64,000 nucleotides of DNA from Hadesarchaea archaeon (lineage in GTDB: Archaea; Hadarchaeota; Hadarchaeia; Hadarchaeales; Hadarchaeaceae). The position numbers and the translations under genes were made by a program. The first letter of the stretch is position 1. Every line of letters starts with the position of its first letter. The notes beneath the pieces are model-generated. The model searched no databases, was not told where the DNA came from, and saw only the letters and a program-made list of their open reading frames with translations. Location of the stretch: assembly GCA_029259175.1 (NCBI GenBank), contig JAPDJH010000001.1:124001-188000 (forward strand), given 5' to 3'. This document shows, piece by piece, positions 9,627-23,257 of this stretch.

Positions 9627-10004
9627 ATGCGGAATAACTTCGCTCGTCTGACGCCACGGGAACTCGAAAAGCTCTCCACCGACTTCTTTAGGAAAATGTG
9701 TGGGGAGGTCAAGTCAACACCATACGTGAAGGACTATAGAGCGGACGTCATAGCAGGGGAGGATGACATGTGGTGCTCGTCCAAGCACAGCCGAAGGCAC
9801 AATGTTGGAGGCGAAGTCCAACGAACACTTAGGATGACGCGGAAGCACGGGGCGAACAAGGCGGTGTTTATTACCTCCTCGAACTTTTACCCGGGAAGCG
9901 GAAAAGCATACAAAGGGGTGCCAATCGAGCTTAGAATTGCAACAGATTCTCCTAGCTACTGGAAAGAATTTCGAAGTTTTGGTGGCCTGGTTGCTAGCGT
10001 TTAA
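9627..10004 (+). CDS. Mrr-like restriction endonuclease fold protein
   Basis: This is a short (125 aa) PD-(D/E)XK protein of the Mrr type. Asp40 in DYRADVIAGEDD is the first catalytic residue, and the second strand reads MWCSSKHSRR with Lys53. RKHGANKAVFITSSNFYPGS matches the conserved A..G..ITTS.F strand of Mrr domains. Mrr enzymes usually have Glu or Gln two residues before the Lys; here it is Ser51, as in partly divergent members, so activity is uncertain. No modified-DNA recognition domain is attached. It sits 18 bp after the zinc protein and 69 bp before the PLD-like gene, probably one operon of Type IV-like restriction components. Confidence 0.65.
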   Translation: MRNNFARLTPRELEKLSTDFFRKMCGEVKSTPYVKDYRADVIAGEDDMWCSSKHSRRHNVGGEVQRTLRMTRKHGANKAVFITSSNFYPGSGKAYKGVPIELRIATDSPSYWKEFRSFGGLVASV

Positions 10005-10073
10005 ATAATAGCGGGTGCTCTTTTGAATCCCAACGTTTTTTATTTTCACCTCCAGAAAGTGATATGCGAAATC

Positions 10074-11051
10074 ATGAGAGTCTCCTTGCTAACAGAGATA
10101 GCTCCAGAGAATAAGCTTTTGAGTAGGATAGCTTCTGAAGCTAGAAACGCAAAGACCGCATTCATAGCGGTTTCATTTATTCAAAGGGAGGGTTTGAAAT
10201 ACTTCTTCGAAAGCATAAAAGGAATGTTAAATAAGGGAAAGCAAGTTACAATTTACACATCGGGTTACCTTCGAATTACTGAGCCAAACGCATTGGAGGA
10301 TCTGTTGAAATTGACTAAAAGCTACAATTCTTTAAAAGTCTATTTTAACCCGGACGACAGGTTCCATTCCAAATTCTTCTTGTTTGAAAAGCCGAACAAA
10401 ACTTATAGCCTTTTTTTGGGTTCTTCTAACATAAGCCTGGGCGGGCTGGCTGAAATTGGGGAGTTAAACGTCCATATTAGTGGCAAAATCTCAGACCAGA
10501 TTTACAGAGACTTGAAAATTGCGATTGACAATCTAAGAAAGAATAGGCGCTTTAAGAAAATTGACAGGGATGTGATATCACAATATAAAACACAATTTAG
10601 AAAACAGAGAAAACGAGAAAGGAGAGGCACGGGGGCGAGACCGGTTTACCACAAACCTTCTCTTCCACCGCTACCAACCTTGCCGGTTTATGTTGTTGTT
10701 GACGAATTCACTAGCGAGGAGATGAGGAAAATCAAAGAAAAACATCCAAGATGGAAAGATTACGTAGACTATATGTCGTCTCTCAACGGGTTGAAAAAAG
10801 GAGATCCCTTTCTTTTAATTAGAAACATTCGTGGGAGACCCAAAATGTTTAATGTTGCTCAATTTATCGAATATGATAGGATTGAAGGCATAGGAAAAAT
10901 TGCTCACATAGAGCCTTACTTCAAAAGAGATCGTCCTCTGAAAAATCTAGCGAAAAAGCTTAGACTCTCAGAGAAAAAGCTTTTGGAGAGGAAAAAATTG
11001 GATAACATTGAGATTGCCATATTGAGAAGAAACTTCAAGATAGACATTTAG
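10074..11051 (+). CDS. Phospholipase D-like nuclease
   Basis: With the ATG at 10074 (MRVSLLTEIAPENK) the protein has 325 residues. The N-terminal ~180 form a PLD-type nuclease domain: RFHSKFFLFE gives the HxK motif (His98, Lys100), then LFLGSSNIS (Ser117-Asn119) and Glu128/Glu130. Only one HxK is present, so it should act as a dimer like BfiI, NgoFVII and other restriction nucleases of this fold. A basic linker (about 180-200) joins a C-terminal domain with PRWKDYVDYMSS and GDPFLLIRNIRGRPKMFN, possibly target-recognising. It is AT-richer than the flanking core genes. It is probably transcribed with the Mrr-like gene. Confidence 0.7.
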   Translation: MRVSLLTEIAPENKLLSRIASEARNAKTAFIAVSFIQREGLKYFFESIKGMLNKGKQVTIYTSGYLRITEPNALEDLLKLTKSYNSLKVYFNPDDRFHSKFFLFEKPNKTYSLFLGSSNISLGGLAEIGELNVHISGKISDQIYRDLKIAIDNLRKNRRFKKIDRDVISQYKTQFRKQRKRERRGTGARPVYHKPSLPPLPTLPVYVVVDEFTSEEMRKIKEKHPRWKDYVDYMSSLNGLKKGDPFLLIRNIRGRPKMFNVAQFIEYDRIEGIGKIAHIEPYFKRDRPLKNLAKKLRLSEKKLLERKKLDNIEIAILRRNFKIDI

Positions 11052-11420: not shown

Positions 11421-12431
11421 TTAAATTTTTTCTAAGAGACCTAGCCAGTCCTGCTTGCTCTTGACTAGAAATCCGCTACTTGCTAGAAAACTGCCGTCTG
11501 GACGGTCTTTGATCGGCACGATGTGGATCGGATACTTCCCCTCTGGATCCAGCTCCTTTATTTTAGGATGCGCTCGAACCGCCTTCTCGGAGAAGATTCC
11601 GAGCCCAGCATAGATCTCTATTCTCCTTTTTTCTTTTCGCCCGGCCAAACGGCACTGCGCAATTATAGGAACACGAAGATCCAGACGGGCTTTCTCAACA
11701 AATCCGGGTATGTAGACGGGGGGTGGCTCGAATTCAGGAATGAGATCCCAAATTTCTTTTTCAGCTTCTTTGGTCAACACTCCAATTTCCCTGCCCAGCG
11801 GAAACAGTTTTTCGCGAATGATGCTAATGTGCTTAAAGAATGAAATCATGTGAGTAATCGGCACGCCACTCTTTACCAAGACAAAAACGTCAGAGTGCTG
11901 AACTTGAGCGCCGGGAAGCTCAAGCCAAGCTCCTTGAAATTTCGTGTCTTTAATGCTTACTCTCAGCCTGGGTTTTGTCCAATTGGCACCCGGTTTTTTG
12001 ATTTCAGAAATGTCGCGCGGGAGATATTTTTCTAAAGGCCCCCTTGTTTTGTCCACGCGCGCCTCAACTCCAAAATGCTCTTTCAAAAACTTCACGAACC
12101 CTATTTCGCCGAGCTCGCCACGCGTCGAGTCCGCCCACTTCTGTAACAGGTCGCGCTCCCCGCCGGTCCGGAAGTCTATCGAAGCATAGCTGAATGCAAG
12201 GCTGAGCCCCCGGATAACTGCTGTTGCGTACTCCTCCGTGTTCAGCCACACTAACCGATCCTGGAGGCGTGAGAGCCACTCCGCAACGTTTTCCCGTATT
12301 AGCTCGCCAACTCTCGTGGCGCTACGCACCAGCTTTTTTGACAAATCTTCCGCGGTTTCCTTTCTCAACCCGTGCTTTCTCATCACCCGTTTGACTTCCT
12401 CACGCACTTCCGCTTCCCAGTGCTTCATCAT
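11421..12431 (-). CDS. PD-(D/E)XK restriction endonuclease of the GHKL-type R-M locus
   Basis: The 336-residue protein has a helical N-terminal part, then GELGEIGFVKFLKEHFGV (Glu106/Glu109), DISEI with Asp140, and RLRVSIKDTKFQG (Lys161). This spaced Glu, Asp and IKxTK series is the PD-(D/E)XK nuclease core. LELPGAQVQHSDVFVLVKSG after it is typical of restriction enzymes that act beside a methylase. It is the last gene of a minus-strand trio (ATPase, unknown, nuclease) opposite a C5 methylase. The likely role is cutting of unmodified target DNA, possibly gated by the ATPase. Met2 (12428) is an equally good start. Confidence 0.7.
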   Translation of the reverse strand: MMKHWEAEVREEVKRVMRKHGLRKETAEDLSKKLVRSATRVGELIRENVAEWLSRLQDRLVWLNTEEYATAVIRGLSLAFSYASIDFRTGGERDLLQKWADSTRGELGEIGFVKFLKEHFGVEARVDKTRGPLEKYLPRDISEIKKPGANWTKPRLRVSIKDTKFQGAWLELPGAQVQHSDVFVLVKSGVPITHMISFFKHISIIREKLFPLGREIGVLTKEAEKEIWDLIPEFEPPPVYIPGFVEKARLDLRVPIIAQCRLAGRKEKRRIEIYAGLGIFSEKAVRAHPKIKELDPEGKYPIHIVPIKDRPDGSFLASSGFLVKSKQDWLGLLEKI

Positions 12432-12511
12432 TACCCATCCGATGCAATAAATTTAAGTTTTAAGTGCAGGCTCTCCCAACGGCTTCAAACCCTTGTGGAA
12501 CCGCGGTTTTC

Positions 12512-13108
12512 TTAGAGGAGCTTATCAAGCTCCGCGTAGAGCTCTTTTCTAGATAAAACAGTGCTATTCGTCTTCTTGAATTTCGCGCGGATCCGCCGGA
12601 GAAGCGCACGCACGCTCTCCGGCTTAAGCTGGCGCGAGCGTTTAACCAACCAAGACATTATCCGGGGATCGTTCTTAATTGCAGAATCAAAGAACTCCAC
12701 CCAAGTTCTCCATCTCTCCTGCGAGGCAACCTCTGGTGGCATTTTTGCAAGCTCATATGAATACCGGAATATAGGATGCCGGAGAAGAGTTTTTTCTGAA
12801 AATCTATGCACCGAAGCGTGGTACTGCGCTGCTTCCAGAAACAAAAACAGCTCTGTTTGCGGGAGAGCGAAAAGCTTTCTCGCTTTCTTCCACAAGCGCT
12901 CCAACTCCTTCCCAAACCAGTACCAGTACTCGGATCCGTATCTTCTAGCATTGGGGAAGCGATTCCGCATTCTCCGCTCAATAGTTGGCACTTCGGCGCT
13001 CAAATATGCGTCCACTCTGTCGGCGGTTTCTTTTTCTTGATAGGTTATTGCACCCCCGCCTGCTTTCTTGTAAAAGGGCTCGTCGCCACGGCGTACGAGA
13101 ACGGGCAC
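12512..13108 (-). CDS. Unknown subunit between ATPase and endonuclease genes
   Basis: This 198-residue, mainly helical, basic protein is rich in Arg, Trp and Tyr (for example RYGSEYWYWFGKELERLWKK). It has no metal or nucleotide motif and is not a family I recognise. It starts 2 bp after the end of the GHKL ATPase gene and is followed after 80 bp by the endonuclease gene, so it is almost certainly translated with them. A structural or DNA-recognition subunit of the restriction complex is the simplest guess from context. Confidence 0.55.
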   Translation of the reverse strand: MPVLVRRGDEPFYKKAGGGAITYQEKETADRVDAYLSAEVPTIERRMRNRFPNARRYGSEYWYWFGKELERLWKKARKLFALPQTELFLFLEAAQYHASVHRFSEKTLLRHPIFRYSYELAKMPPEVASQERWRTWVEFFDSAIKNDPRIMSWLVKRSRQLKPESVRALLRRIRAKFKKTNSTVLSRKELYAELDKLL

Positions 13109-13110
13109 GT

Positions 13111-15084
13111 TTATGCCCCCTTTTTCTCCAGTATGAGAGAAACCAAATCGGTTGAAGTTTTCAAAACTTCTTCAGCACTCATTTCTTTATCGAACGGTTT
13201 TAGTCCTTCCATAGCCATTATCTCAGCGACGGCGCGCGCTAGGAGCTCCACAGCATATTCATTTGTGCTTTCCTGATTTCGGCACCTCAGGCGGTACTGA
13301 GGGTGACTGGTGCTGATTTTTAACACATACCCTCCTTCTGGGTGGCTCTCTACTCTAAATTGCGGATTGAGCTCCTTTTCCCCAAATTTTCCTGAGAGCT
13401 TAGGTACATACTTGATATCGCGGAATATTCCAGTTGCTGGTGGCGGGTCCTGCTCAACCCACAGTGTAAAGATTGCTGTATCGAGTTTTTCGCCTTTATG
13501 ATGTCTTGGATGTTCCAAGCACTCTAGCTCAGCAATCAGCTTGCACCTCCCTGGTGCAAGCTTTCCTGCGCTTATCTGGACACGAAAATCTCCAATTTGT
13601 TTTTTCTCTCTTGGAGCTATATTTGCCCGCTTTTTGCGTAAAAGATCTTTGACGGTCACACCTGCCTGCTCGAGGCGCGCGCCAACTTCCACCCGCGCCT
13701 TGCAATCAGTTCTGTTTGCAACCTCTAAAGTAAACGATACTTCTTCTCCAAAATCAACGCGCGAGTAGCCTCTGGGAAGATTCAGATTTTTAAAAGCCAC
13801 ACCGATGTCCCGTGGCGAAACATGTGGGCGTCTCTTCCCTGGACGTCCTTCCGAAAGGGTAATACCTAGTTCCTTCAGCAGACGGTTAAAATCACGCAGG
13901 AGCTGGTAAAATCCGGCTGGCCTCTCTTTGACTTCAATACCCAGTTTCTCCTCAGCGAACCTGCGGAGTTCGTTAGCCAAGAATGCTCTTATTTGAGGCA
14001 CAATCCCTCGGCCAAAGGCGCTTGCCGTTCTTATGAATCCGTAGTGCGTTGGATCCTCCACTTTTTTCAGCAATTCTTCCGTGCCCATATCTCCTTCAAA
14101 AAATCCGTAGATACGATCCGCTTTCTCTGGCGGGAGATCTGTCAAATCGCTGACGGGAAATCTAGTAATAACCATTCCGCCTCGCAAGATCGCTATGCCT
14201 CGGACATCTTCTGGAGGGGGGGACTCAAGAAAACACAGATTGAGCATCTTTACGCGCGTAGACCTTTTGCCTCTCTTAAGCAGACAATCTCGCCTTATCC
14301 AAACTTTTACGCTTTTTGAATCCTCTGTCGGAAACCTCAACTCGCTCGGAACCTCAACTGTCTGCTCATCACTACCGTGCTTCAAAATTACGCGGAGAGA
14401 GCCATTTTCCAACAGTCGCCACCAAGTAGTTTGAATATACCTTTTAAACGATCCATTTAGAAAGGCTTCTTTCAGCTCTTCTACAGGGTCAACGATGATT
14501 ATCCTAGTCCCAACAGTCTGAAGAGGTTGCAAAGCAGGGAAATATTGCTTTAACATTGCTCGTGCTCTTGCTCCCTCCACGGGGTTGTCTAAATCGCCCA
14601 ACTTTCGGGCGCCCAGTCTGTACACTCCGTCCTTTCGGTAGGTATCGTACACTATAAGATGCTTTTTTGAGTTCATCACGAAAACAAATTTTCCTTGCCC
14701 CCGTGCCCCGCGCTTTGTCGGATCTGGACGCAGAAATGCGTAACCTTCAAAACGGCCCCATCTTTCTTCTTCTGGTAGATCGCGCCTCATTTCCTCCTCC
14801 GAAAGGATTCGGCCTGTAAGACCCGTTGTGCCACTGTCAGCAATAATGAAAAGCGGAGGGTTTGCTTCATCGATTAGCTCGAACCGCACTACTATCTGCC
14901 GTGCGTTAGGATCTTGGGCATCTACCGAATTCTGAAGCGCGTCCTTCTGGAGTGGATGAATTAAATTGTCTACGTGGTATAGATAGTTACGCTTGATGTT
15001 GTCAAGGACCCCCTCCCAAAAAGTAGGAGTCTGTCGTCGCGCTTCACTTATGCGCTTCTCAATTTTGTCAATGTTTACTATCAT
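13111..15084 (-). CDS. GHKL (MORC/MutL-like) ATPase of a restriction system
   Basis: The ~657-residue protein has the Bergerat ATP fold: QNSVDA (Asn52) as N box, IADSGTTGLTG (Asp82) as G1, and GARGQG at about 126-131 as G2/lid. Prokaryotic GHKL ATPases of this kind sit in restriction-modification operons and were proposed as ancestors of eukaryotic MORC proteins. The C-terminal ~250 residues are strand-rich. The in-frame Met at 15195 adds 37 odd residues and crowds the divergent methylase; ATG 15084 (MIVNIDKIEK) is preferred, with the AT stretch ttattaaataaat upstream as a possible promoter. It likely clamps or moves on DNA to license cleavage by the 11421-12431 nuclease. Confidence 0.7.
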   Translation of the reverse strand: MIVNIDKIEKRISEARRQTPTFWEGVLDNIKRNYLYHVDNLIHPLQKDALQNSVDAQDPNARQIVVRFELIDEANPPLFIIADSGTTGLTGRILSEEEMRRDLPEEERWGRFEGYAFLRPDPTKRGARGQGKFVFVMNSKKHLIVYDTYRKDGVYRLGARKLGDLDNPVEGARARAMLKQYFPALQPLQTVGTRIIIVDPVEELKEAFLNGSFKRYIQTTWWRLLENGSLRVILKHGSDEQTVEVPSELRFPTEDSKSVKVWIRRDCLLKRGKRSTRVKMLNLCFLESPPPEDVRGIAILRGGMVITRFPVSDLTDLPPEKADRIYGFFEGDMGTEELLKKVEDPTHYGFIRTASAFGRGIVPQIRAFLANELRRFAEEKLGIEVKERPAGFYQLLRDFNRLLKELGITLSEGRPGKRRPHVSPRDIGVAFKNLNLPRGYSRVDFGEEVSFTLEVANRTDCKARVEVGARLEQAGVTVKDLLRKKRANIAPREKKQIGDFRVQISAGKLAPGRCKLIAELECLEHPRHHKGEKLDTAIFTLWVEQDPPPATGIFRDIKYVPKLSGKFGEKELNPQFRVESHPEGGYVLKISTSHPQYRLRCRNQESTNEYAVELLARAVAEIMAMEGLKPFDKEMSAEEVLKTSTDLVSLILEKKGA

Positions 15085-15216
15085 CACCAAGACCTTTTTC
15101 TTCCATTTATTTAATAACTCCTCAAACGCCCAGTAATAGCAAAATGAAAAGATGCGAGCGCTGAAAGTAGCATAAAACTCAAATCCCCAAGTCATCTAGA
15201 TAAATCTGGTGAAAGA

Positions 15217-16605
15217 GTGAAGCACAAGGTTGTATCGCTGTTTTCGGGAGCCGGCGGGCTGGATTTGGGTTTTGCTTCTTCAGGAAAATTTGAAATACTG
15301 CTGGCAAACGAAATCTTGGATCCCCCAGCTGAAACTTATTCGCTGAACTTTAAAGTTGAAAAAGTAAGCCAGCGCGTGTCCCTTCCATGCATTTTGAGGT
15401 CTGATGTTGCCGACCTGGACTTCTCAACGCTTCAGGGAAGTGAGATAGACGTCGTTATAGGAGGGCCACCGTGCCAAGACTTTTCAATAGTTCGAGGACC
15501 GGCGACGGAGAGGAAGGGAGTGGAGGTAAAACGAGGCAGGTTGTACGCGCACTTTGTGCGGGCTTTGATAAAATTGCAACCCAAGGTTTTCGTGTTCGAA
15601 AATGTTCCAGGCTTGAAAAGCTCCAACAATGGCTTGGCATATCGAACTATTTTAGAGGATTTTAAGAATCTTGGCATTCGATGGGCGGAGGTAAAGGAAG
15701 TTCTGGAGAAGCAGAACGGCAACGGGAAGAGCGTCGGCTACGAAGTAGTGTTCAGCGAAGTAGTGAATATGTCAAAATTGGGAGTTCCTCAAGCGCGGGA
15801 GAGGCTTATCATCGTCGGCGTGAGGCGTGATATTCTTCATGCAGGAGGTGGCGCTCGTTTGTGGAGGCTGGCTCAGCACCTCCGCACGGTCCTTAGCGGT
15901 TGTGGAAAAGCGGTTTCAGACTGCCCTCTAACCCCCATCGAAGCTTTTGAAGGGAAGCCTCTCCCAGAACTCCAAAGCGTATACGAGGACGTGATGAGGG
16001 AATATGCTGATGTCTTTTCCGAAGTTGCTACATCGACAGCGAAGGAGTGGAAGCGAAAAGTCTGGGACCGCCTCACGTTCGACGCGGTGAGAGACTACAC
16101 ATATATAAACGAAATAAAAGTGCCAGAAAACTGGCTTGAAAATGCCTTTAAGGAGCACGCGGAGCTTCTCGAGGAGCTTGGATACAAAGGCGTCAAAGTG
16201 GCGGAGATAGCGCCTCCAGACGGAAGCAATGCTAGGCCGAAAGAGTCCCGAACCGTCATCGAAAGGCTTAAGAGAATTCCGCCCGGGGCGAACCACGAAT
16301 TTGTAAGGGGAACCAAATGGGAGGTTGAAGGGCGGGGCATGAGCCTCATATACCGGCGCATCTTTCCCCTGAAGCCTGCGTATACGGTAGTAGCGTACGG
16401 TGGCGGTGGAACGTGGGGGTATCACTACGAGCGGGATCGAGGAATGCTTACCAACCGAGAACGGGCCCGGCTTCAAACATTTCCCGACTGGTTTTTGTTC
16501 TGCGGAGGGTGGGCGCAAGTTCGAGCGCAGATAGGCGAAGCTGTTCCGCCTCTTGCAGCAAAAAGGATTGCTAGCGCGCTTGATGAATTCTTGAAGCATG
16601 TCTGA
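15217..16605 (+). CDS. C5-cytosine DNA methyltransferase
   Basis: All main motifs of the Dcm/HhaI family are visible: FSGAGGLDLGF (motif I, residues 9-19), GGPPCQDFS with catalytic Cys86 (motif IV), FENVPGLKS (Glu127, motif VI), QARERLIIVGVR (motif VIII), then RARLQTFPDWF and GEAVPPLAAKRIA (motifs IX and X). Between VIII and IX lies a long (~190 residue) target-recognition region. The enzyme makes 5-methylcytosine using S-adenosylmethionine and should protect host sites from the nuclease at 11421. The GTG at 15217 is 132 bp from the divergent ATPase start. Downstream, a mismatch glycosylase gene starts after 45 bp. Confidence 0.9.
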   Translation: MKHKVVSLFSGAGGLDLGFASSGKFEILLANEILDPPAETYSLNFKVEKVSQRVSLPCILRSDVADLDFSTLQGSEIDVVIGGPPCQDFSIVRGPATERKGVEVKRGRLYAHFVRALIKLQPKVFVFENVPGLKSSNNGLAYRTILEDFKNLGIRWAEVKEVLEKQNGNGKSVGYEVVFSEVVNMSKLGVPQARERLIIVGVRRDILHAGGGARLWRLAQHLRTVLSGCGKAVSDCPLTPIEAFEGKPLPELQSVYEDVMREYADVFSEVATSTAKEWKRKVWDRLTFDAVRDYTYINEIKVPENWLENAFKEHAELLEELGYKGVKVAEIAPPDGSNARPKESRTVIERLKRIPPGANHEFVRGTKWEVEGRGMSLIYRRIFPLKPAYTVVAYGGGGTWGYHYERDRGMLTNRERARLQTFPDWFLFCGGWAQVRAQIGEAVPPLAAKRIASALDEFLKHV

Positions 16606-16650
16606 ACTCGCTATCGACTTTTTAATTTGCCCGGAAGCAAATAAAAAATC

Positions 16651-17325
16651 GTGCGGGCGCAAGAGAAGAAGACTGAGTTCAGAAAGCAGATGATCAAGTG
16701 GTACAGAAGATACGGAAGGCACGATCTTCCGTGGAGGAAGACTTCCGATCCTTGGAAAATACTGCTAGCTACATTAATGCTCAGAAAAACAACAGCTCGG
16801 CAAACAGAGAAGATTTATAAGAAGTTCATAGAGCGCTATCCCAATCCCCAAAGCGTGTGTTCTGAAAGCGAGAAGAAAATCAGGTCAGTGATACGCCCGC
16901 TGGGGATAGAACACCAGCGCGCGCGCCTGATAAAGCGCTTGGCCTCAGAAATTGTGGAAAAATTTGGGGGAAATGTGCCAGCAGATATGCGCAAGCTGAA
17001 GTTACTTAAAGGGGTTGGCGAATACACCGCTTCAGAAGTTCTGCTTGTAGCTTACGGCGAGCCACGACCGCTTTTAGACCGTAACATGATTCGAGTAATA
17101 GAGAGAGTCTTCGGCATAAAATCAAAAAAAGCGCGACCCCACACGGATGCACAACTTTGGAAATTCTGTAAGAGCTTGCTTCCAAAGGATCCGGAGCTGG
17201 CAAAGGAATTTAACTACGGGGTGCTGGACTTTGCTAGCTCAATCTGCCAAATCACGCCGAAGTGCGAACGTTGCCCGCTACGCTTAATCTGCTATTATTT
17301 TGCCAGACGGAAAGTTGGCGCTTAA
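16651..17325 (+). CDS. Thymine/G-mismatch DNA glycosylase (MIG-type, EndoIII family)
   Basis: The protein is an HhH-GPD glycosylase with an iron-sulfur loop (Cys199, 205, 208, 214). The hairpin reads LKGVGEYTASE, with Tyr125 where endonuclease III has its catalytic Lys and MutY has Ser. Asp143 (LLDRNM) follows exactly 18 residues later, as in EndoIII. Tyr here is the mark of the archaeal Mig.Mth-type T/G mismatch glycosylase, which removes thymine formed by deamination of 5-methylcytosine. Its place right after a C5 methylase fits that job, as in the known methanogen plasmid case. The start is GTG 16651. The 280 bp after it hold no gene, only a TATA-like box at 17567 for the next one. Confidence 0.8.
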   Translation: MRAQEKKTEFRKQMIKWYRRYGRHDLPWRKTSDPWKILLATLMLRKTTARQTEKIYKKFIERYPNPQSVCSESEKKIRSVIRPLGIEHQRARLIKRLASEIVEKFGGNVPADMRKLKLLKGVGEYTASEVLLVAYGEPRPLLDRNMIRVIERVFGIKSKKARPHTDAQLWKFCKSLLPKDPELAKEFNYGVLDFASSICQITPKCERCPLRLICYYFARRKVGA

Positions 17326-17604: not shown

Positions 17605-19206
17605 ATGGGCAGGAACCCCGTCACGCGAAACGAAATAGCGAAGGTTCTTTCCGACCTCAAGCCGAGGAGCGTGAGAGAAATAGCCGAGGAAGCAGGTCTC
17701 ACTCCAAAAGTCGTTGGGGCTGCCCTGGACCGGATGTGGAGGGCAGGGCTGGTGCTCCGGACGAGGCAGCCCATCCGAGAGCGAACGAAGATCTTCAGGG
17801 GACGAGCTGGGACGAGTGAGAACCTGCGGTCCTACTACCTCTATGTGCTGAAGCCCGAAGGGAAGGAGAGGTTGAGAATTGGGGAACACGAGTTCGTCCC
17901 ATTCTCCACAGAGTACTTGGATGTGCGGGGAGGGGGGAGGATCAGCAAAGCGAAGCTGATTCTGGAGTTCCTGCGGAAGCACCGGGACAGGGCGTGGTTC
18001 TCCGTCGAGATAGCGGAGGCGCTGAAGGACAAGGGCGTGAAGGTGCGGGACATCATGCCCACCGTAAGGCGCTACCAGCGGAGGGGGCTGGTTTTCGTGA
18101 AGGGATTTACAACGGCTGGCGGGCGGGAGACCCCGACCGAGTATGGGTATGTCATCACTTGGCTTGATCGTGACAAGCCGATTGAGCGGGCGATTGAGGA
18201 GGCGCTGAAGCGGTATGAAGCCGCCCTGAACCGCAAGCGGCTCGAGTCACCTACGGTCGAGCGCTACAACCGCGTCCGCGAGCTTATCATAACCCAATCC
18301 AAGCTCGGGCACCTTACCGATGTGGAGTACATCACGAACCAGCTCCGCTGTTCGAGGTATCAGGCTCAGGATGCCCTTAAGAGGGTTCAGCAGCTCTTCG
18401 GCGACATAAAGGAGGTCAAGCTCTTCGACCTCTACAAGTTCTACTACCACGAGTCGATGCCGGAGGCGAAGCTCAGGGCAGCGATAAAGATGAAGGAGCA
18501 GTACATACGGGCACATGGCGGGCGGAAGCACCGTTATGGGCACAACTGGGAAGCGGTGGTGGAGTGGTTCGTCGAGACTTTCACTCCCGGGGCACGCTTC
18601 TGGGAGCAAAAGCACAGGGGGGAAGGGATGGATCCGCGGAGGATAACCCTCTACTTGATAAAGAATGTGGGGAAGCGGAGGCGACGGGCGGAGGTTGACC
18701 GCGTGTGGGAGGTGCGGGAGGATCCCTTCAGCCCACCGACCGTCAATGTGCTCTCCTGTAAAGCGGGGGTGGTGCGCAAGCAGGACATAGAGGACTTCTT
18801 TGAGGTTCTGCGCTGGAGCAAGGAGTTCGGGGCGGACACCCCGGACGGGAGGGTGATAAAGCAGGGAGTCGTCGGGAAGTTCGCCGCCGAGACCTTCGAC
18901 CCGCGTGAGAAAGTCAAGCTGAAGGACGGGACGGAGATAACCCTCTCCCAGTACGCGAGCAGGCTTGGCATCACCCTCATCAAGGCTTCCGACTTCAACG
19001 AAATGATGCGGAAGTGGGGATGTTCCCCGAAGGTGAATGTCCAGAAGATTTGTAAGTGGGCCAAGAACGAGAAAGAGGTCAGGGAGATCTTGACATCGAT
19101 TTACCAGAATCCATCGCGAGCCGAAGAAATCTTGGAAAAAGTTAGAGAACGAAACCTTCCGCTTTACCAGTTTGAGAAAAAACTTGAGGAGAGTGGAAAA
19201 TGTTAG
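17605..19206 (+). CDS. Multi-winged-helix protein with possible nuclease C-terminus
   Basis: The 533-residue protein starts with a clear winged helix (EIAKVLSDLKPRSVREIAEE, then TPKVVGAALDRMWRAGLV). A second follows at about 115-165 (LILEFLRKHRDRAWFSVEIA, then TVRRYQRRGLVFV) and a third at about 225-265. The C-terminal part has DRVWEV, then VNVLSCKAGVVRKQDIEDFF, which could be a degenerate PD-(D/E)XK core, but an acidic pair is not certain. Proteins of this architecture are scattered in archaeal mobile regions. A TATA-like tttatatt lies about 30 bases before the ATG. Base composition is GC-rich, unlike the AT-rich genes that follow. Function unknown. Confidence 0.6.
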   Translation: MGRNPVTRNEIAKVLSDLKPRSVREIAEEAGLTPKVVGAALDRMWRAGLVLRTRQPIRERTKIFRGRAGTSENLRSYYLYVLKPEGKERLRIGEHEFVPFSTEYLDVRGGGRISKAKLILEFLRKHRDRAWFSVEIAEALKDKGVKVRDIMPTVRRYQRRGLVFVKGFTTAGGRETPTEYGYVITWLDRDKPIERAIEEALKRYEAALNRKRLESPTVERYNRVRELIITQSKLGHLTDVEYITNQLRCSRYQAQDALKRVQQLFGDIKEVKLFDLYKFYYHESMPEAKLRAAIKMKEQYIRAHGGRKHRYGHNWEAVVEWFVETFTPGARFWEQKHRGEGMDPRRITLYLIKNVGKRRRRAEVDRVWEVREDPFSPPTVNVLSCKAGVVRKQDIEDFFEVLRWSKEFGADTPDGRVIKQGVVGKFAAETFDPREKVKLKDGTEITLSQYASRLGITLIKASDFNEMMRKWGCSPKVNVQKICKWAKNEKEVREILTSIYQNPSRAEEILEKVRERNLPLYQFEKKLEESGKC

Positions 19207-19280
19207 AAAATCTATGTAATGAAGCCATAGAATTGAGAGTTTATACTAATGGAAAGACTAAGTAGAATTTGGTGAGCGCT

Positions 19281-19691
19281 GTGAAACATTGGTTGTGTAT
19301 CACCAACGAAGCCAATTGGGCGGTTGTGAAAACCAAGAAAGTATGGGGTGTTAATTCGAAACACGAAAAAGTAATGAATATGGTAGAGAAAGACGATAAA
19401 TTAGTTTTTTATGTGAAGCCTTTACGCATTGGAGGTATTTTCACCGCAATTTCCAAACCATATAAGGATGAGACTCCTATTTTTTCTGGAGGAGAATTTC
19501 CTTACAGAGTTAAGATTAAACCACTCGTGCTCCCGAAAAAATTCCTCGACTTTTACTCATTGTTTGGAAGACTCAAATTCATCACTCAAAAGAAGAAAAA
19601 AGGTTGGGGCGGGCACTTACAAGGAAAAGCTATGCGAATTATTCCAAAAGAAGATTTTGACTTGATCAAAAGAGAATTAGAGCGGATTTAA
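19281..19691 (+). CDS. EVE/PUA-like domain protein
   Basis: The GTG at 19281 (reading KHWLCITNEANW) follows ggtga by five bases and is a better start than the TTG at 19269. The 136 residues make an EVE domain: WLCITN, VWGVNSKHEKVMNMVEKDDK, LVFYV, then IFTAISKPY and a strand pair. EVE domains bind modified or flipped bases and are frequent in anti-phage islands next to methylases or nucleases. It ends 12 bp before the methylase at 19704, so the two are probably one operon, with the EVE protein perhaps sensing the methylation state. Confidence 0.8.
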   Translation: MKHWLCITNEANWAVVKTKKVWGVNSKHEKVMNMVEKDDKLVFYVKPLRIGGIFTAISKPYKDETPIFSGGEFPYRVKIKPLVLPKKFLDFYSLFGRLKFITQKKKKGWGGHLQGKAMRIIPKEDFDLIKRELERI

Positions 19692-19703
19692 AGGTGATTT
19701 TTA

Positions 19704-21155
19704 ATGGAAGTGAATACTTCTGTAGCTGATTACACAACTTTCAAAAGTCAAAAAGAAAAGCATTTTGTAAGAAAAGAAAAAGTTTTTGGTCAGTTTATGA
19801 CTCCCGCCGAGGTGGCGGGTTTTATTGTAAGTTTCGCGATCCAATCACTCGAATATAAACCCAAGCTTGCCATTGATCCGGCGTGTGGCGATGGAATTTT
19901 TTTGAGAGAGCTTGTGAGAGCTGGAGTTCCCCATATTGTGGGTATTGATATAGATCCCGAAGTATCGGAATCGATCCCTCCGGATATTAAATCTCAGCCT
20001 AATGTAGAACTTATTATCCCCCAAGACGGGTTGGAGGACTCGAGATATGAAGGAAAAGCAGACATTGTCGTAGGCAATCCTCCTTTCAGTGCCAAATATG
20101 GGCGGATAAAAGACACCCGACTCTCGAATTTTGAATTAGGGAAACAAAAGACAAGTCAGGCAATAGAAATTTTATTTTTGGAGAAGTTTATACGATTAGC
20201 CAAAAACGGAGGGGTGATAGGAATCATTCTGCCTTTCGGTATTTTTGCCAATTTACCACTTCGGGATGTTCGAGAATTTATATTAAAAAACACCGAAGTT
20301 CTTGCCGTGGTTTCTTTACCACGTTTCATCTTTAGAAGCGTCTCCAACACAAGTTCGAAGACCTGTATTTTATTTGCCAGAAAGAGAAACTCTCCAAACA
20401 CTAAAGAAGTCTATATGTCTATTGTGAATCGAATAGAGGAATTGCCACTCCTTCTGGACAGAAAAGAACACGAATCACCAATGGCAAAATTTGTAAAATT
20501 AGAAGACCACATCCTTTATCCAGAATACTATCTTCTGTTTTCCGAACTCCCCAAAACATCATATCCGACAATGAAGTTAGGAGACTTGGTCGATATCTCC
20601 TGTGGCAGAACAGAATATGGGGAAAAGAGAAAATTCGTAGAAAAAGGCATTCCCTTTATTTCAGCAAAAACTGTTACGCAGCTCGGCATAGATTTCTCAC
20701 GAGATAGGAAGTTTGTCGAGCCTGGCAGTGAAATGGATAAGAAGAGCGCTCGTGTTAAGGTTGGCGATGTCGTCTTTGTTAGGGTTGGTGTTGGGTGTAT
20801 CGGAAGAGCAGCCGTAATTACAGATGAAAATGATCTTGGGGTTGTGGATGATTGGTCATACATCTTAAGAACGAAAAGAAACACTATTTCTCCATATTTC
20901 TTAGTTTTTTACCTCCAATCAAATTTCGTGCGCTCACTAATAAAAAAGTTAAGTAGAGGAGTTGGGACGGTGACCCTCCCACAAGCTCTTTTGAAACAAA
21001 TACGAATTCCTATTCCTGAAAAAGAGATTGAGAGAAAGCTTAAAAAAATTTATTTAGAGATGGTTAACGCGAGAAGAAAAGGAAAAACAATTCTGGCGAA
21101 AAAGAAATTTGAAGAAGGATTGTCCCTGTTAAAAAAAGAAGTTTTTCAAGAGTGA
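19704..21155 (+). CDS. Type I-like N6-adenine methylase fused to specificity domain
   Basis: Residues 1-270 are an HsdM-like methylase: GQFMTPAEVAGF, DPACGDG (58-64, SAM-binding) and GNPPF (124-128, the N6-adenine catalytic motif). From about residue 285 (TMKLGDLVDISCGRTEYGEK) to 470 the sequence is one HsdS target-recognition domain ending in a long helix (IERKLKKIYLEMVNARR). Fusion of modification and specificity in 483 residues is typical of compact Type I-derived or Type IIG-like systems, but no helicase-nuclease HsdR is nearby. The gene is AT-rich. The two unknown genes downstream (21271 and 21962) are the only candidates for a restriction partner. Confidence 0.85.
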   Translation: MEVNTSVADYTTFKSQKEKHFVRKEKVFGQFMTPAEVAGFIVSFAIQSLEYKPKLAIDPACGDGIFLRELVRAGVPHIVGIDIDPEVSESIPPDIKSQPNVELIIPQDGLEDSRYEGKADIVVGNPPFSAKYGRIKDTRLSNFELGKQKTSQAIEILFLEKFIRLAKNGGVIGIILPFGIFANLPLRDVREFILKNTEVLAVVSLPRFIFRSVSNTSSKTCILFARKRNSPNTKEVYMSIVNRIEELPLLLDRKEHESPMAKFVKLEDHILYPEYYLLFSELPKTSYPTMKLGDLVDISCGRTEYGEKRKFVEKGIPFISAKTVTQLGIDFSRDRKFVEPGSEMDKKSARVKVGDVVFVRVGVGCIGRAAVITDENDLGVVDDWSYILRTKRNTISPYFLVFYLQSNFVRSLIKKLSRGVGTVTLPQALLKQIRIPIPEKEIERKLKKIYLEMVNARRKGKTILAKKKFEEGLSLLKKEVFQE

Positions 21156-21270: not shown

Positions 21271-21936
21271 ATGGGTATTAAATGTAGAGTTCTTTCCGAT
21301 GACCAAAGAAATATTGTGGTAGAATTACCTATTACTTTGCCCACAGCCTTAGTTAGAATTAAAGATAAGGATGGAAATCCAGTTGGGAGTGTTAGACAAC
21401 AAAATCTAAGGAAAGGGTGGTATATCGAATGGCAAATTTCATATTTTGATGAAAATAAGGAACTTGTGGAATTAGGGGAAATGTTCAGACTACTGGTAGA
21501 ATTCGGAAAACTCAACGAAGCAGAAATAAAAGAACTTTACCAAAACATTCAAAAAAGGAACACATTTTTTGAAGAAATTTTTTCTGTTTGTTTAGAAGAG
21601 AGTAAAAAACCACCAGAATTCGAAGGGTTTGTGTTATGGTATAGGAAAAACCCAATTTTGAGAAAATATCTTTCTGATGGTTCCATCATCCACATAGAGT
21701 TAAGACATAAACAAAAAGCTGTGGGATACCAAGCTATGTTGTATCTATTTATTCCCATAGAAAATGTGAGATCGAAGGAAGGCGAATTGATAATAAACCG
21801 TCCCGCACGTCAAAAAGAGGTCGTTGTGTGGTTTCCAAAAAAAGAACACATTATAGAACTTGTAAAAGCGTTTTCTTGTATGTCGAGAAAGCATTTCGAG
21901 GATATTATGTCTATAGTTAGGAGTTTTCTTTGTTAA
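21271..21936 (+). CDS. Unknown protein, paralogue of the next gene
   Basis: The 221-residue protein begins with a strand pair (NIVVELPITLPTALVRIKDK), followed by a helical middle. The C-terminal half reads AMLYLFIPIENV, then LIINRPARQKEVVVWFPKKE and IIELVKAFSCMSRKHFED. The same plan recurs in the 21962-22579 product, so this is a diverged tandem duplication. No catalytic motif is certain. It starts 115 bp after the methylase-specificity fusion, preceded by aaggtggtaagaac. A restriction, DNA-recognition or effector subunit of that system is possible; this rests on position only. Confidence 0.55.
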   Translation: MGIKCRVLSDDQRNIVVELPITLPTALVRIKDKDGNPVGSVRQQNLRKGWYIEWQISYFDENKELVELGEMFRLLVEFGKLNEAEIKELYQNIQKRNTFFEEIFSVCLEESKKPPEFEGFVLWYRKNPILRKYLSDGSIIHIELRHKQKAVGYQAMLYLFIPIENVRSKEGELIINRPARQKEVVVWFPKKEHIIELVKAFSCMSRKHFEDIMSIVRSFLC

Positions 21937-21961: not shown

Positions 21962-22579
21962 ATGATCGTGCAAGTTCAAGGTGATAAATTAGTTGTGGAA
22001 TTTCCTCTTAGTCAACCAAAAAGTTCTTGGAGAGTCAGGTCAAAAAAAAGAAGAGGGCGAAGGGGCTGGAAAAAAGACCCGAATTTATGGATTTTTAGAC
22101 CCACTTTTGGAGACTTGATCTATGAAGGAGACATTTTCGAATGGATGATAAGTAATGAGGAACTGCGCGAGATACTTTATGTTGCAAAATGCATGGAAGC
22201 TGATTATTATGAAGAAATCAAGAAAGCCATACATAATTTGAACAAGTTTGAAAGTCACGTAGATATAACACTTGGTTGGGGCGTAAAAATCGAAGGTGAA
22301 CTGAGACCCAAACAAAAAAAAGGAGAAGAACTGACTCCCTGGTTTTTTATTTTGTTTCCATTGGATAGAAGTTCAAATGTCTACTATTTGAAAGATGCGA
22401 AAAACAACAAGATTGAAAATCCCATCAACCGAAAAATCAGAGCAGGAGATAGACTGGTTTGGGTTGTAGATCTCAATTGGCTCAAAACCATTATTCTTAA
22501 ATTGGCTGGATTGAGCGAGGATCATAAGGAAAAAATTATTAAGGAGGTCTTTGAACCAATTGATAATCTCAAGTTATAA
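21962..22579 (+). CDS. Unknown protein, paralogue of the preceding gene
   Basis: The 205 residues repeat the architecture of the 221-aa neighbour: an N-terminal strand pair (KLVVEFPLSQPKSSWRVRSK), a helical middle, then PWFFILFPLD, NPINRKIRAGDRLVWVVDLN and LKTIILKLAGLSEDHKEKII. The shared INR.xR....VW pattern and the closing helix argue for common descent. A basic loop (KKRRGRRGWKK, about residues 28-38) could touch nucleic acid. The start is 25 bp after the previous stop, with gaggag close before the ATG. Its last 6 bp overlap the convergent methylase at 22574. Confidence 0.55.
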   Translation: MIVQVQGDKLVVEFPLSQPKSSWRVRSKKRRGRRGWKKDPNLWIFRPTFGDLIYEGDIFEWMISNEELREILYVAKCMEADYYEEIKKAIHNLNKFESHVDITLGWGVKIEGELRPKQKKGEELTPWFFILFPLDRSSNVYYLKDAKNNKIENPINRKIRAGDRLVWVVDLNWLKTIILKLAGLSEDHKEKIIKEVFEPIDNLKL

Positions 22580-23257
22580 ATTTACTCTAAACAATCTTTT
22601 TTGAGCGAGCTGGTAGTATCTCTTATTTATTTCAAAACCGATAAACCGTCTTTTCAGTTGCTTACAAGCCACAGCAGTACTCCCGCTTCCGATGAAAGGA
22701 TCCAAAACCAAATCGCCTTCCTTAGAAAACATCCGTAAAATTTCTTTGATGAAGTGCTTGGGTTTAGGCGTTGGATGGTCTATAAACCCTTCGTCGGGTT
22801 CAACCAGCTTCCCCGGAGTATCAATGAAAAGATCTCTATTTCGGGAAATTATTTTTGGATTTCCTTTTTTGAAAACGAAACAAGACATATACTTGGTAAT
22901 ACCAATTGGAGATCTAACTGCTCCCTCAGGACAGTATAAAATAATTTGCCAAAAATATGTGAATGGATTGTGTTTGAACAAAGCAGGCAAAAATTTCGTG
23001 CTAAAAAATGTGATGAAAAAAGAGTTGTCTCTTAGCACCCTATAGCACTCGGGCAGAATTTTATAGAAAGTTGTCAAATTTTCGTCACTATAAACTCCTT
23101 CCTTACCAAGTCCGTAAGGTGGATCTGTAAGGATTAAATCTATTTTTCTGTTAGGTATTTTTTTGATCAGCTGGAGAGCATCGCCACAAATTATTTTATT
23201 AATGAAATCATCTGGAAACTTCAATTTCGAAATGTCATCGTTTCTTTGTGTGTCCAT
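22574..23257 (-). CDS. Orphan DNA methyltransferase (N6-adenine or N4-cytosine, beta class)
   Basis: DPPYGLGKEGVYSDE (catalytic motif IV) comes first and DPFIGSGSTAVA (SAM motif I) near the C-terminus, the order of beta-class N6-A/N4-C methylases such as those of phages and CcrM relatives. It has 227 residues and no separate target domain beyond the middle segment, so it probably recognises a short site. No cognate nuclease is clearly paired: it is convergent with 21962-22579 and has a small overlapping frame upstream. It may be a solitary protective or regulatory methylase. Confidence 0.85.
   Translation of the reverse strand: MDTQRNDDISKLKFPDDFINKIICGDALQLIKKIPNRKIDLILTDPPYGLGKEGVYSDENLTTFYKILPECYRVLRDNSFFITFFSTKFLPALFKHNPFTYFWQIILYCPEGAVRSPIGITKYMSCFVFKKGNPKIISRNRDLFIDTPGKLVEPDEGFIDHPTPKPKHFIKEILRMFSKEGDLVLDPFIGSGSTAVACKQLKRRFIGFEINKRYYQLAQKRLFRVNL

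What the first reader, a model, noticed from the sequence alone, without database searches (positions are those of the whole stretch)
11421..17325. Restriction-modification locus with GHKL (MORC-like) ATPase, PD-(D/E)XK nuclease, unknown protein, C5 methylase and dedicated mismatch glycosylase
Five genes, three on minus and two on plus around one control region, combine DNA cleavage, an ATPase of the MORC/MutL type, cytosine methylation and a repair enzyme for the deamination product of that methylation. GHKL ATPases in R-M operons are known, and methylase-linked T/G glycosylase is known, but all together with the unknown 198-aa protein is unusual and would be a self-contained system for a hot environment where m5C deaminates quickly.
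Basis: partly seen in the sequence, partly recalled or inferred. Interest (0 to 1): 0.8.

Follow-up and report, generated by a model that had tools for sequence, protein, structure and literature searches.

The report
Archaeal restriction system with GHKL ATPase
A heat-loving archaeon carries a DNA-cutting defence system whose protective DNA mark is prone to mutate in heat; next to the cutter, the marking enzyme and a matching repair enzyme sits an ATP-driven two-gene module, and comparison with other genomes shows that this combination recurs, with the repair enzyme swapped according to lineage.

Summary
The five genes are real and intact. R (11421-12431), the C5 methylase M (15217-16605) and a Mig-type T/G glycosylase (16651-17325) form a three-gene type II R-M-repair cassette that also occurs without the other two genes on Thermus plasmids and in archaeon G480. 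The GHKL ATPase (13111-15084) and the 198-aa protein P (12512-13108) are a separate, rare module, found in 5 genomes among about 1,500 archaeal genome searches. In G190, G678 and G895 the genome's only C5 methylase and only Vsr lie directly beside it. The window's own genome has a second such locus (M, Mig paralogue, another GHKL, partners), and an Arthrobacter plasmid has dcm-vsr-EcoRII-type REase-GHKL-DUF6339. So GHKL + partner + C5 methylase + G/T-mismatch enzyme is a recurrent architecture, partly described as paraMORC-linked R-M (Iyer 2008) and as PADLOC candidate PDC-M33A. Both thermophile loci use Mig where the others use Vsr. The GHKL is paraMORC2-like (ExxxH), not shown to be MORC. 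Best reading: a standard R-M-Mig core plus an ATP-switched GHKL/P restriction module guarded by the same methylase. Whether R and GHKL/P act together is not shown. A new variant of a known kind.

The parts
11421..12431 (-). R: type II restriction endonuclease, 336 aa, variant PD-(D/E)XK (E109, D140, S159-x-K161); TATA-like stretch in the 80-bp gap upstream
   Evidence: PDLC03411 1.5e-53; invariant residues in 7 homologues; 30% to the Thermus plasmid R, 41% to the G480 R
12512..13108 (-). P: partner protein, 198 aa, predicted mostly helical, no known family; always directly after the GHKL gene
   Evidence: homologues directly downstream of GHKL in L002, G190, G678, G895 (alignments); AF2 pLDDT 58; no PDB or fold match
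13111..15084 (-). GHKL ATPase, 657 aa, paraMORC2-like: Bergerat motifs (D48..N52, D83xGTxG, G126xxGxGK, G192TR), ExxxH (E343..H347), Ig/CARDB-like beta-sandwich about 425-545
   Evidence: motifs; profile-profile with PDC-M33A-type GHKL 95%, 2e-8; ExxxH hallmark from PMC2292703; beta-sandwich region
15085..15216 (.). 132-bp divergent control region between GHKL(-) and M(+); TTATTAAATAAA lies 22-33 nt upstream of the GHKL ATG
   Evidence: sequence
15217..16605 (+). M: C5-cytosine DNA methyltransferase, 462 aa, long target-recognition region, motif X with GE instead of GN
   Evidence: PF00145 2.3e-53; PDLC03223 7.8e-180; 45-58% to M of the R-M-Mig loci
16651..17325 (+). Mig-type T(U)/G mismatch glycosylase, 224 aa; Y125 and D143, four Cys of a 4Fe-4S cluster, no MutY C-terminal domain
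   Evidence: 1kea best PDB hit 1.4e-41; 40% to the Thermus and 59% to the G530 Mig; motifs

Best explanation
A methylation-guarded DNA defence locus made of two modules. Module 1 is a conventional type II R-M cassette: M puts m5C on the recognition site of the host genome, R cuts the unmethylated site on incoming DNA, and Mig removes T from the T:G mismatches that arise when m5C deaminates, which matters most in a hot cell. Module 2 is the GHKL ATPase plus P. The GHKL protein most likely dimerises on DNA in an ATP-dependent, clamp-like cycle (as MutL and MORC do), and P is its fixed partner. Together they add an ATP-switched restriction arm that is held off on host DNA by the same methylation, either by licensing or extending cleavage by R or by damaging DNA themselves. 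Shown: intact genes, catalytic motifs, and recurrent linkage of GHKL/P to a C5 methylase plus a G/T-mismatch enzyme. Inferred: enzymatic activities, the clamp action, methylation gating, and any contact between R and GHKL/P.
For: R-M-Mig found as a unit on Thermus plasmids and in G480. GHKL/P sits beside a C5 methylase and Vsr in G190, G678 and G895; these are the only C5 methylase and only Vsr in each genome. A second locus in the same genome, C2:153762-159877, has M, Mig, two partner genes, a GHKL and a 311-aa gene homologous (E 6e-59) to the gene beside GHKL in G678/G895. An Arthrobacter plasmid has dcm, vsr, EcoRII-C REase, GHKL and DUF6339. Related GHKL families in R-M loci were reported in PMC2292703. 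Chance of such adjacency is about 1 in 10^7 over three independent lineages (my estimate from genome sizes and methylase counts).
Against: R-M-Mig exists without GHKL/P elsewhere, so GHKL/P is not needed for it. R has a TATA-like sequence of its own. In Bathyarchaeon G028 the GHKL/P pair has no C5 methylase in the assembly, though that contig is 5.6 kb. No nuclease motif was found in GHKL or P. The catalytic Glu of the GHKL N-box is Asp (D48), so ATP hydrolysis may be weak.
Confidence: 0.55

Rival explanations
1. Two independent defence systems share a spot: R-M-Mig is complete by itself, and GHKL/P is an unrelated module that was inserted between R and M in a defence island, with no functional contact.
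For: R-M-Mig occurs without GHKL/P; the window region is a defence island with several other nucleases and methylases; R seems to have its own promoter.
Against: In three other genomes GHKL/P is beside the only C5 methylase and only Vsr; a second GHKL-M-Mig locus exists in the same genome. Linkage to C5 methylases in particular is not expected for an unrelated module.
Confidence: 0.25
2. GHKL/P is a MutL-like accessory of the G/T mismatch enzyme (Mig here, Vsr elsewhere): it senses T:G mismatches at deaminated m5C and couples them to repair, not to restriction.
For: Every C5-methylase-linked GHKL/P locus also has Vsr or Mig; by general knowledge E. coli Vsr is stimulated by MutL; GHKL/P locus G678 has no obvious REase next to it.
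Against: Mig and Vsr occur with C5 R-M systems lacking GHKL/P (G480, Thermus, G572), and Mig is active alone in Methanothermobacter (general knowledge). The Arthrobacter locus pairs GHKL with an REase.
Confidence: 0.1
3. GHKL/P is a regulator: a histidine-kinase-like sensor that controls expression or activity of the R-M genes, as proposed for HEF_HK/Response_reg_2 elements near C5 methylases.
For: HEF_HK GHKL proteins near C5 methylases and Vsr are reported in PMC8011034.
Against: No sensor, histidine-kinase or response-regulator domain was found by Pfam in GHKL or P.
Confidence: 0.05

Closest known systems
paraMORC2 family in R-M operons (Iyer, Abhiman, Aravind 2008, PMC2292703)
   Same: GHKL ATPase with ExxxH motif, neighbourhood of C5 methylase, Vsr and RE-fold nucleases, sporadic distribution
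   Different: No SFII helicase here; a Mig glycosylase replaces Vsr; conserved partner P and the Ig/CARDB-like domain are not mentioned in the text read; membership not tested with their sequences
PADLOC candidate system PDC-M33 (gene A), as on Arthrobacter plasmid pAAG24-152
   Same: GHKL with D-x-GT-x-GLTG, partner genes, dcm, vsr and REase beside it; profile-profile 95%, 2e-8
   Different: The window GHKL matches the PADLOC model only at the N-box (E 0.0082); partner P is not detectably DUF6339 (probability 0.9%)
Type II R-M with Mig glycosylase (pAA1-1c and pPS18 Thermus plasmids; the Mig.Mth/MthTI locus of Methanothermobacter from memory)
   Same: R, C5 M and T/G glycosylase homologous gene by gene and adjacent (Thermus plasmids)
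   Different: No GHKL/P there; gene order and strands differ
VcSduA, a Shedu nuclease with an N-terminal GHKL ATPase (PMC12137116)
   Same: GHKL ATPase proposed to control an RE-fold nuclease in phage defence
   Different: Single fused protein; no methylase named in the passages read

Membership tests
Type II R-M system with dedicated G/T repair | Adjacent REase and C5 methylase of known co-occurring families | tested here: met
   R PDLC03411, M PDLC03223; same pair adjacent in G480 and Thermus plasmids; in the window the two are separated only by the GHKL/P pair
Type II R-M system with dedicated G/T repair | R and M share one recognition site | not testable with these tools
   Site avoidance in 424 kb of the genome was inconclusive
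Mig-type T/G glycosylase | Tyr and Asp of the active site, 4 Cys, no 8-oxoG domain, closer to Mig than to MutY | tested here: met
   Y125, D143; 1kea 145.8 bits against at most 123.2 for MutY; at the place of MutY's essential Glu (position from memory) the window has Thr (alignment)
MORC family proper | GhXhhpXXRhl motif in the S5 domain | tested here: inconclusive
   Not recognised on reading the alignment; no dedicated motif scan was run
paraMORC2 (Iyer 2008) | Conserved ExxxH in the C-terminal part of the S5 domain | tested here: met
   E343-x3-H347 in all five homologues; that this lies in the S5 domain is inferred from position
paraMORC2 (Iyer 2008) | Sequence similarity to published paraMORC2 members | not tested
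   Their sequences were not at hand
GHKL ATPase superfamily | Motifs I-IV in order, similarity to a known GHKL protein | tested here: met
   Motifs in 5 of 5 (the N-box ends in GA in G678/G895); hhalign to G845 GHKL 83% and to the PDC-M33A-type profile 95%, above shuffled controls
PDC-M33 (PADLOC) | Full-length match to PDC-M33A | tested here: not met
   Window GHKL 12.8 bits over 33 residues; the second-locus GHKL does match, 2e-21
DUF6339 (partner P) | Pfam PF19866 match or homology | tested here: not met
   No Pfam hit; hhalign probability 0.9%, score 19.3 against shuffled maximum 15.4: same gene slot only

The most novel reading that the evidence does not exclude
GHKL + P (with or without the 311/324-aa gene) is itself an ATP-dependent restriction effector of a so far unassayed type that needs only a C5 methylase as its antidote, as the G678 contig suggests (no REase next to it). 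The window locus would then be a double-barrelled system in which one methylase guards both a classical REase and the GHKL effector.
Probability: 0.3. Interest if true: 0.75.

Novelty: new variant of a known kind. Interest (0 to 1): 0.52.

Why it matters
Prokaryotic MORC-like ATPases in R-M loci were predicted in 2008, and the papers found here report no assay of a paraMORC from such a methylase-linked locus. These loci give small, portable test sets: four to six genes, some thermostable. The use of Mig in both loci of a thermophile, where the other archaeal loci and the Arthrobacter plasmid use Vsr, suggests that these defence loci pick their repair enzyme to suit the lineage or temperature. 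P is a conserved gene of unknown function with a definite partner.

Tried and rejected
Plasmid and phage tblastn with the window GHKL: no match. IMG/VR scans for the GHKL: none. Pfam, NCBIfam and PHROGs give no match for the window's GHKL, P or R. PDB profile searches found nothing for the GHKL or R and nothing below E 0.07 for P. AlphaFold models are poor (P pLDDT 58, GHKL 38), so fold matches are not used except for the well-predicted beta-sandwich at about 425-545 (CARDB/Ig-like). Recognition site by avoidance: GCWGC 0.72 of expected (0.84 in a congener), but CCWGG 0.51 (0.64) and GGWCC 0.61 (0.89) are lower, so no call is made. GCWGC as a lead comes from M.ApeKI (PMC8557920), which also lacks GN in motif X; no ApeKI sequence was at hand. 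I first suspected that the five-gene set was a chance neighbourhood; the single-copy linkage in three genomes and the second locus spoke against it.

Full report
WHAT IS THERE. The five open reading frames are present as described. R, P and GHKL run on the minus strand; M and Mig run on the plus strand; 132 bp separate the divergent starts of GHKL (15084) and M (15217). Homologues start near 15084, so the 694-aa frame is about 37 aa too long. P starts 2 bp after the GHKL stop. R lies 80 bp further on behind a TATA-like stretch of its own. The genome is a 1.3-Mb archaeal assembly. The GC of the two tRNAs (66-69%) and of 5S RNA (73%) fits a thermophile (the rule is general knowledge).

MODULE 1, R-M-MIG. 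M is a clear C5 methylase. The glycosylase is closest to Mig of Methanothermobacter (1kea). It keeps Tyr and Asp of the active site and four cysteines, lacks the MutY C-terminal domain, and has Thr where MutY needs Glu (alignment; the role of that Glu is general knowledge). R matches a PADLOC REase_II family at 1.5e-53; E109, D140 and S159-x-K161 are invariant in seven relatives. The same three genes are contiguous on Thermus plasmids pAA1-1c and pPS18 and in archaeon G480, present but degraded in G530, and with Vsr instead of Mig in G572. None of these has the GHKL/P pair. So R, M and Mig are a known, self-sufficient kind of system.

MODULE 2, GHKL/P. The GHKL protein has the Bergerat motifs in order, with Asp48 where MutL has its catalytic Glu, and an ExxxH motif, which PMC2292703 gives as the mark of paraMORC2. 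No Pfam model recognises it. It aligns with a GHKL of genome G845 (hhalign 83%) and, profile to profile, with GHKL proteins of the PDC-M33A type (95%, E 2e-8), sharing D-x-G-T-x-G-L-T-G. Searches of 28, 398, 394, 327 and 400 archaeal genomes (partly overlapping sets) found the family in G000, G028, G190, G678 and G895 only; a sixth genome, G845, matched at the C-terminus only. In all five, P follows directly.

LINKAGE. In G190 (L008) GHKL-P is followed by a convergent C5 methylase, with Vsr beyond it. In G678 (L016) and G895 (L029) the order is 324-aa gene, GHKL, P, convergent with Vsr and M; G895 has one additional 569-aa gene. PF00145 and PF03852 searches of the whole genomes show one C5 methylase and one Vsr in each of these three genomes, at these places. 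The window's own genome has two C5 methylases; the second one (C2) is followed by a Mig paralogue (35% identical) and, convergent to them, a 258-aa gene, a 253-aa gene, a second GHKL protein (PDC-M33A 2e-21) and a 311-aa gene homologous to the 324-aa gene of G678 (E 6e-59). A relative of that second GHKL on an Arthrobacter plasmid lies behind dcm, vsr and an EcoRII-C REase and before DUF6339 and a Shedu nuclease; one on a Rhizobium plasmid lies about 4 kb from a C5 methylase; one on an Acetoanaerobium record follows a type I-like cluster. G028 is the exception: no C5 methylase in a fragmented assembly. From genome sizes and methylase counts I estimate about 1e-7 for chance adjacency in three independent lineages (G190; G678/G895; window).

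HOW IT MOST LIKELY WORKS. M marks host sites; R cuts unmarked sites; Mig mends T:G from deaminated m5C. GHKL/P adds an ATP-switched arm that presumably loads on DNA as a dimer and is restrained on host DNA by the same mark. That GHKL/P travels with distantly related C5 methylases (M of the window, G190 and G678/G895 share only 27-37% in parts) suggests that it takes its specificity from elsewhere (the methylase mark, P or the 311/324-aa gene) or adapts quickly. Loci without an obvious REase (G678) leave open that GHKL/P is itself an effector. These steps are inference.

KNOWN OR NEW. Linkage of MORC/paraMORC ATPases to C5 methylases, Vsr and RE-fold nucleases has been in print since 2008 (PMC2292703), and PADLOC lists PDC-M33A as a candidate. 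New here, as far as the held literature shows: partner family P, its constant pairing with the paraMORC2-like protein, the Mig-for-Vsr exchange at two loci of one thermophile, and a co-resident classical REase of the Thermus-plasmid family.

LIMITS. Bacterial genomes could not be searched broadly. Structure models were poor. No activity or recognition site is shown. Site avoidance was inconclusive.

Noticed in passing
21271-21936 (+), 21962-22579 (+), 22574-23257 (-): R.PabI-like base-excision restriction enzyme (PF09522 1e-9), a 205-aa gene weakly similar to it (BLAST E 0.001) and an N6/N4 methylase: probably a second R-M system whose cutter is a glycosylase.
   Followed up: partly
19269-21155 (+): EVE-domain protein (5.7e-11) followed by an N6 methylase fused to a specificity domain (PDLC03311 2.3e-151); no REase identified.
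   Followed up: no
9627-11051 (+): Mrr-type nuclease (125 aa, PF04471 3.8e-10) followed by a PLD-fold nuclease resembling NgoFVII and DrmC, just outside the locus.
   Followed up: no
17605-19206 (+): 533-aa protein with N-terminal winged helix; the rest matches nothing.
   Followed up: no
L088 3763-9878 (own genome C2:153762-159877): Second GHKL / C5 methylase / Mig locus in the same genome, with a PDC-M33A-type GHKL.
   Followed up: yes
L012 438-1859 (IMG/VR 3300006674_000147): Phage-like contig carries a solitary methylase 56% identical to the window M, beside Dam-like and terminase-like genes (gene naming by eye): possible phage counter-defence.
   Followed up: partly
L022 6850-10041 (G530): R-M-Mig locus with M split by a frameshift and the 3' end of R on the other strand, while Mig is intact: a decaying system.
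   Followed up: partly
16651-17325 and L055 14957-15604: PADLOC family PDLC03398 labels these Mig-type glycosylases 'Type II nicking endonuclease', probably a mislabel.
   Followed up: partly
L016 1786-2760, L029 10410-11378, L088 8943-9878: Conserved 311-324-aa gene at the head of the GHKL operon, shared between two GHKL subfamilies, function unknown; absent from the window locus, where R is at the other end.
   Followed up: partly
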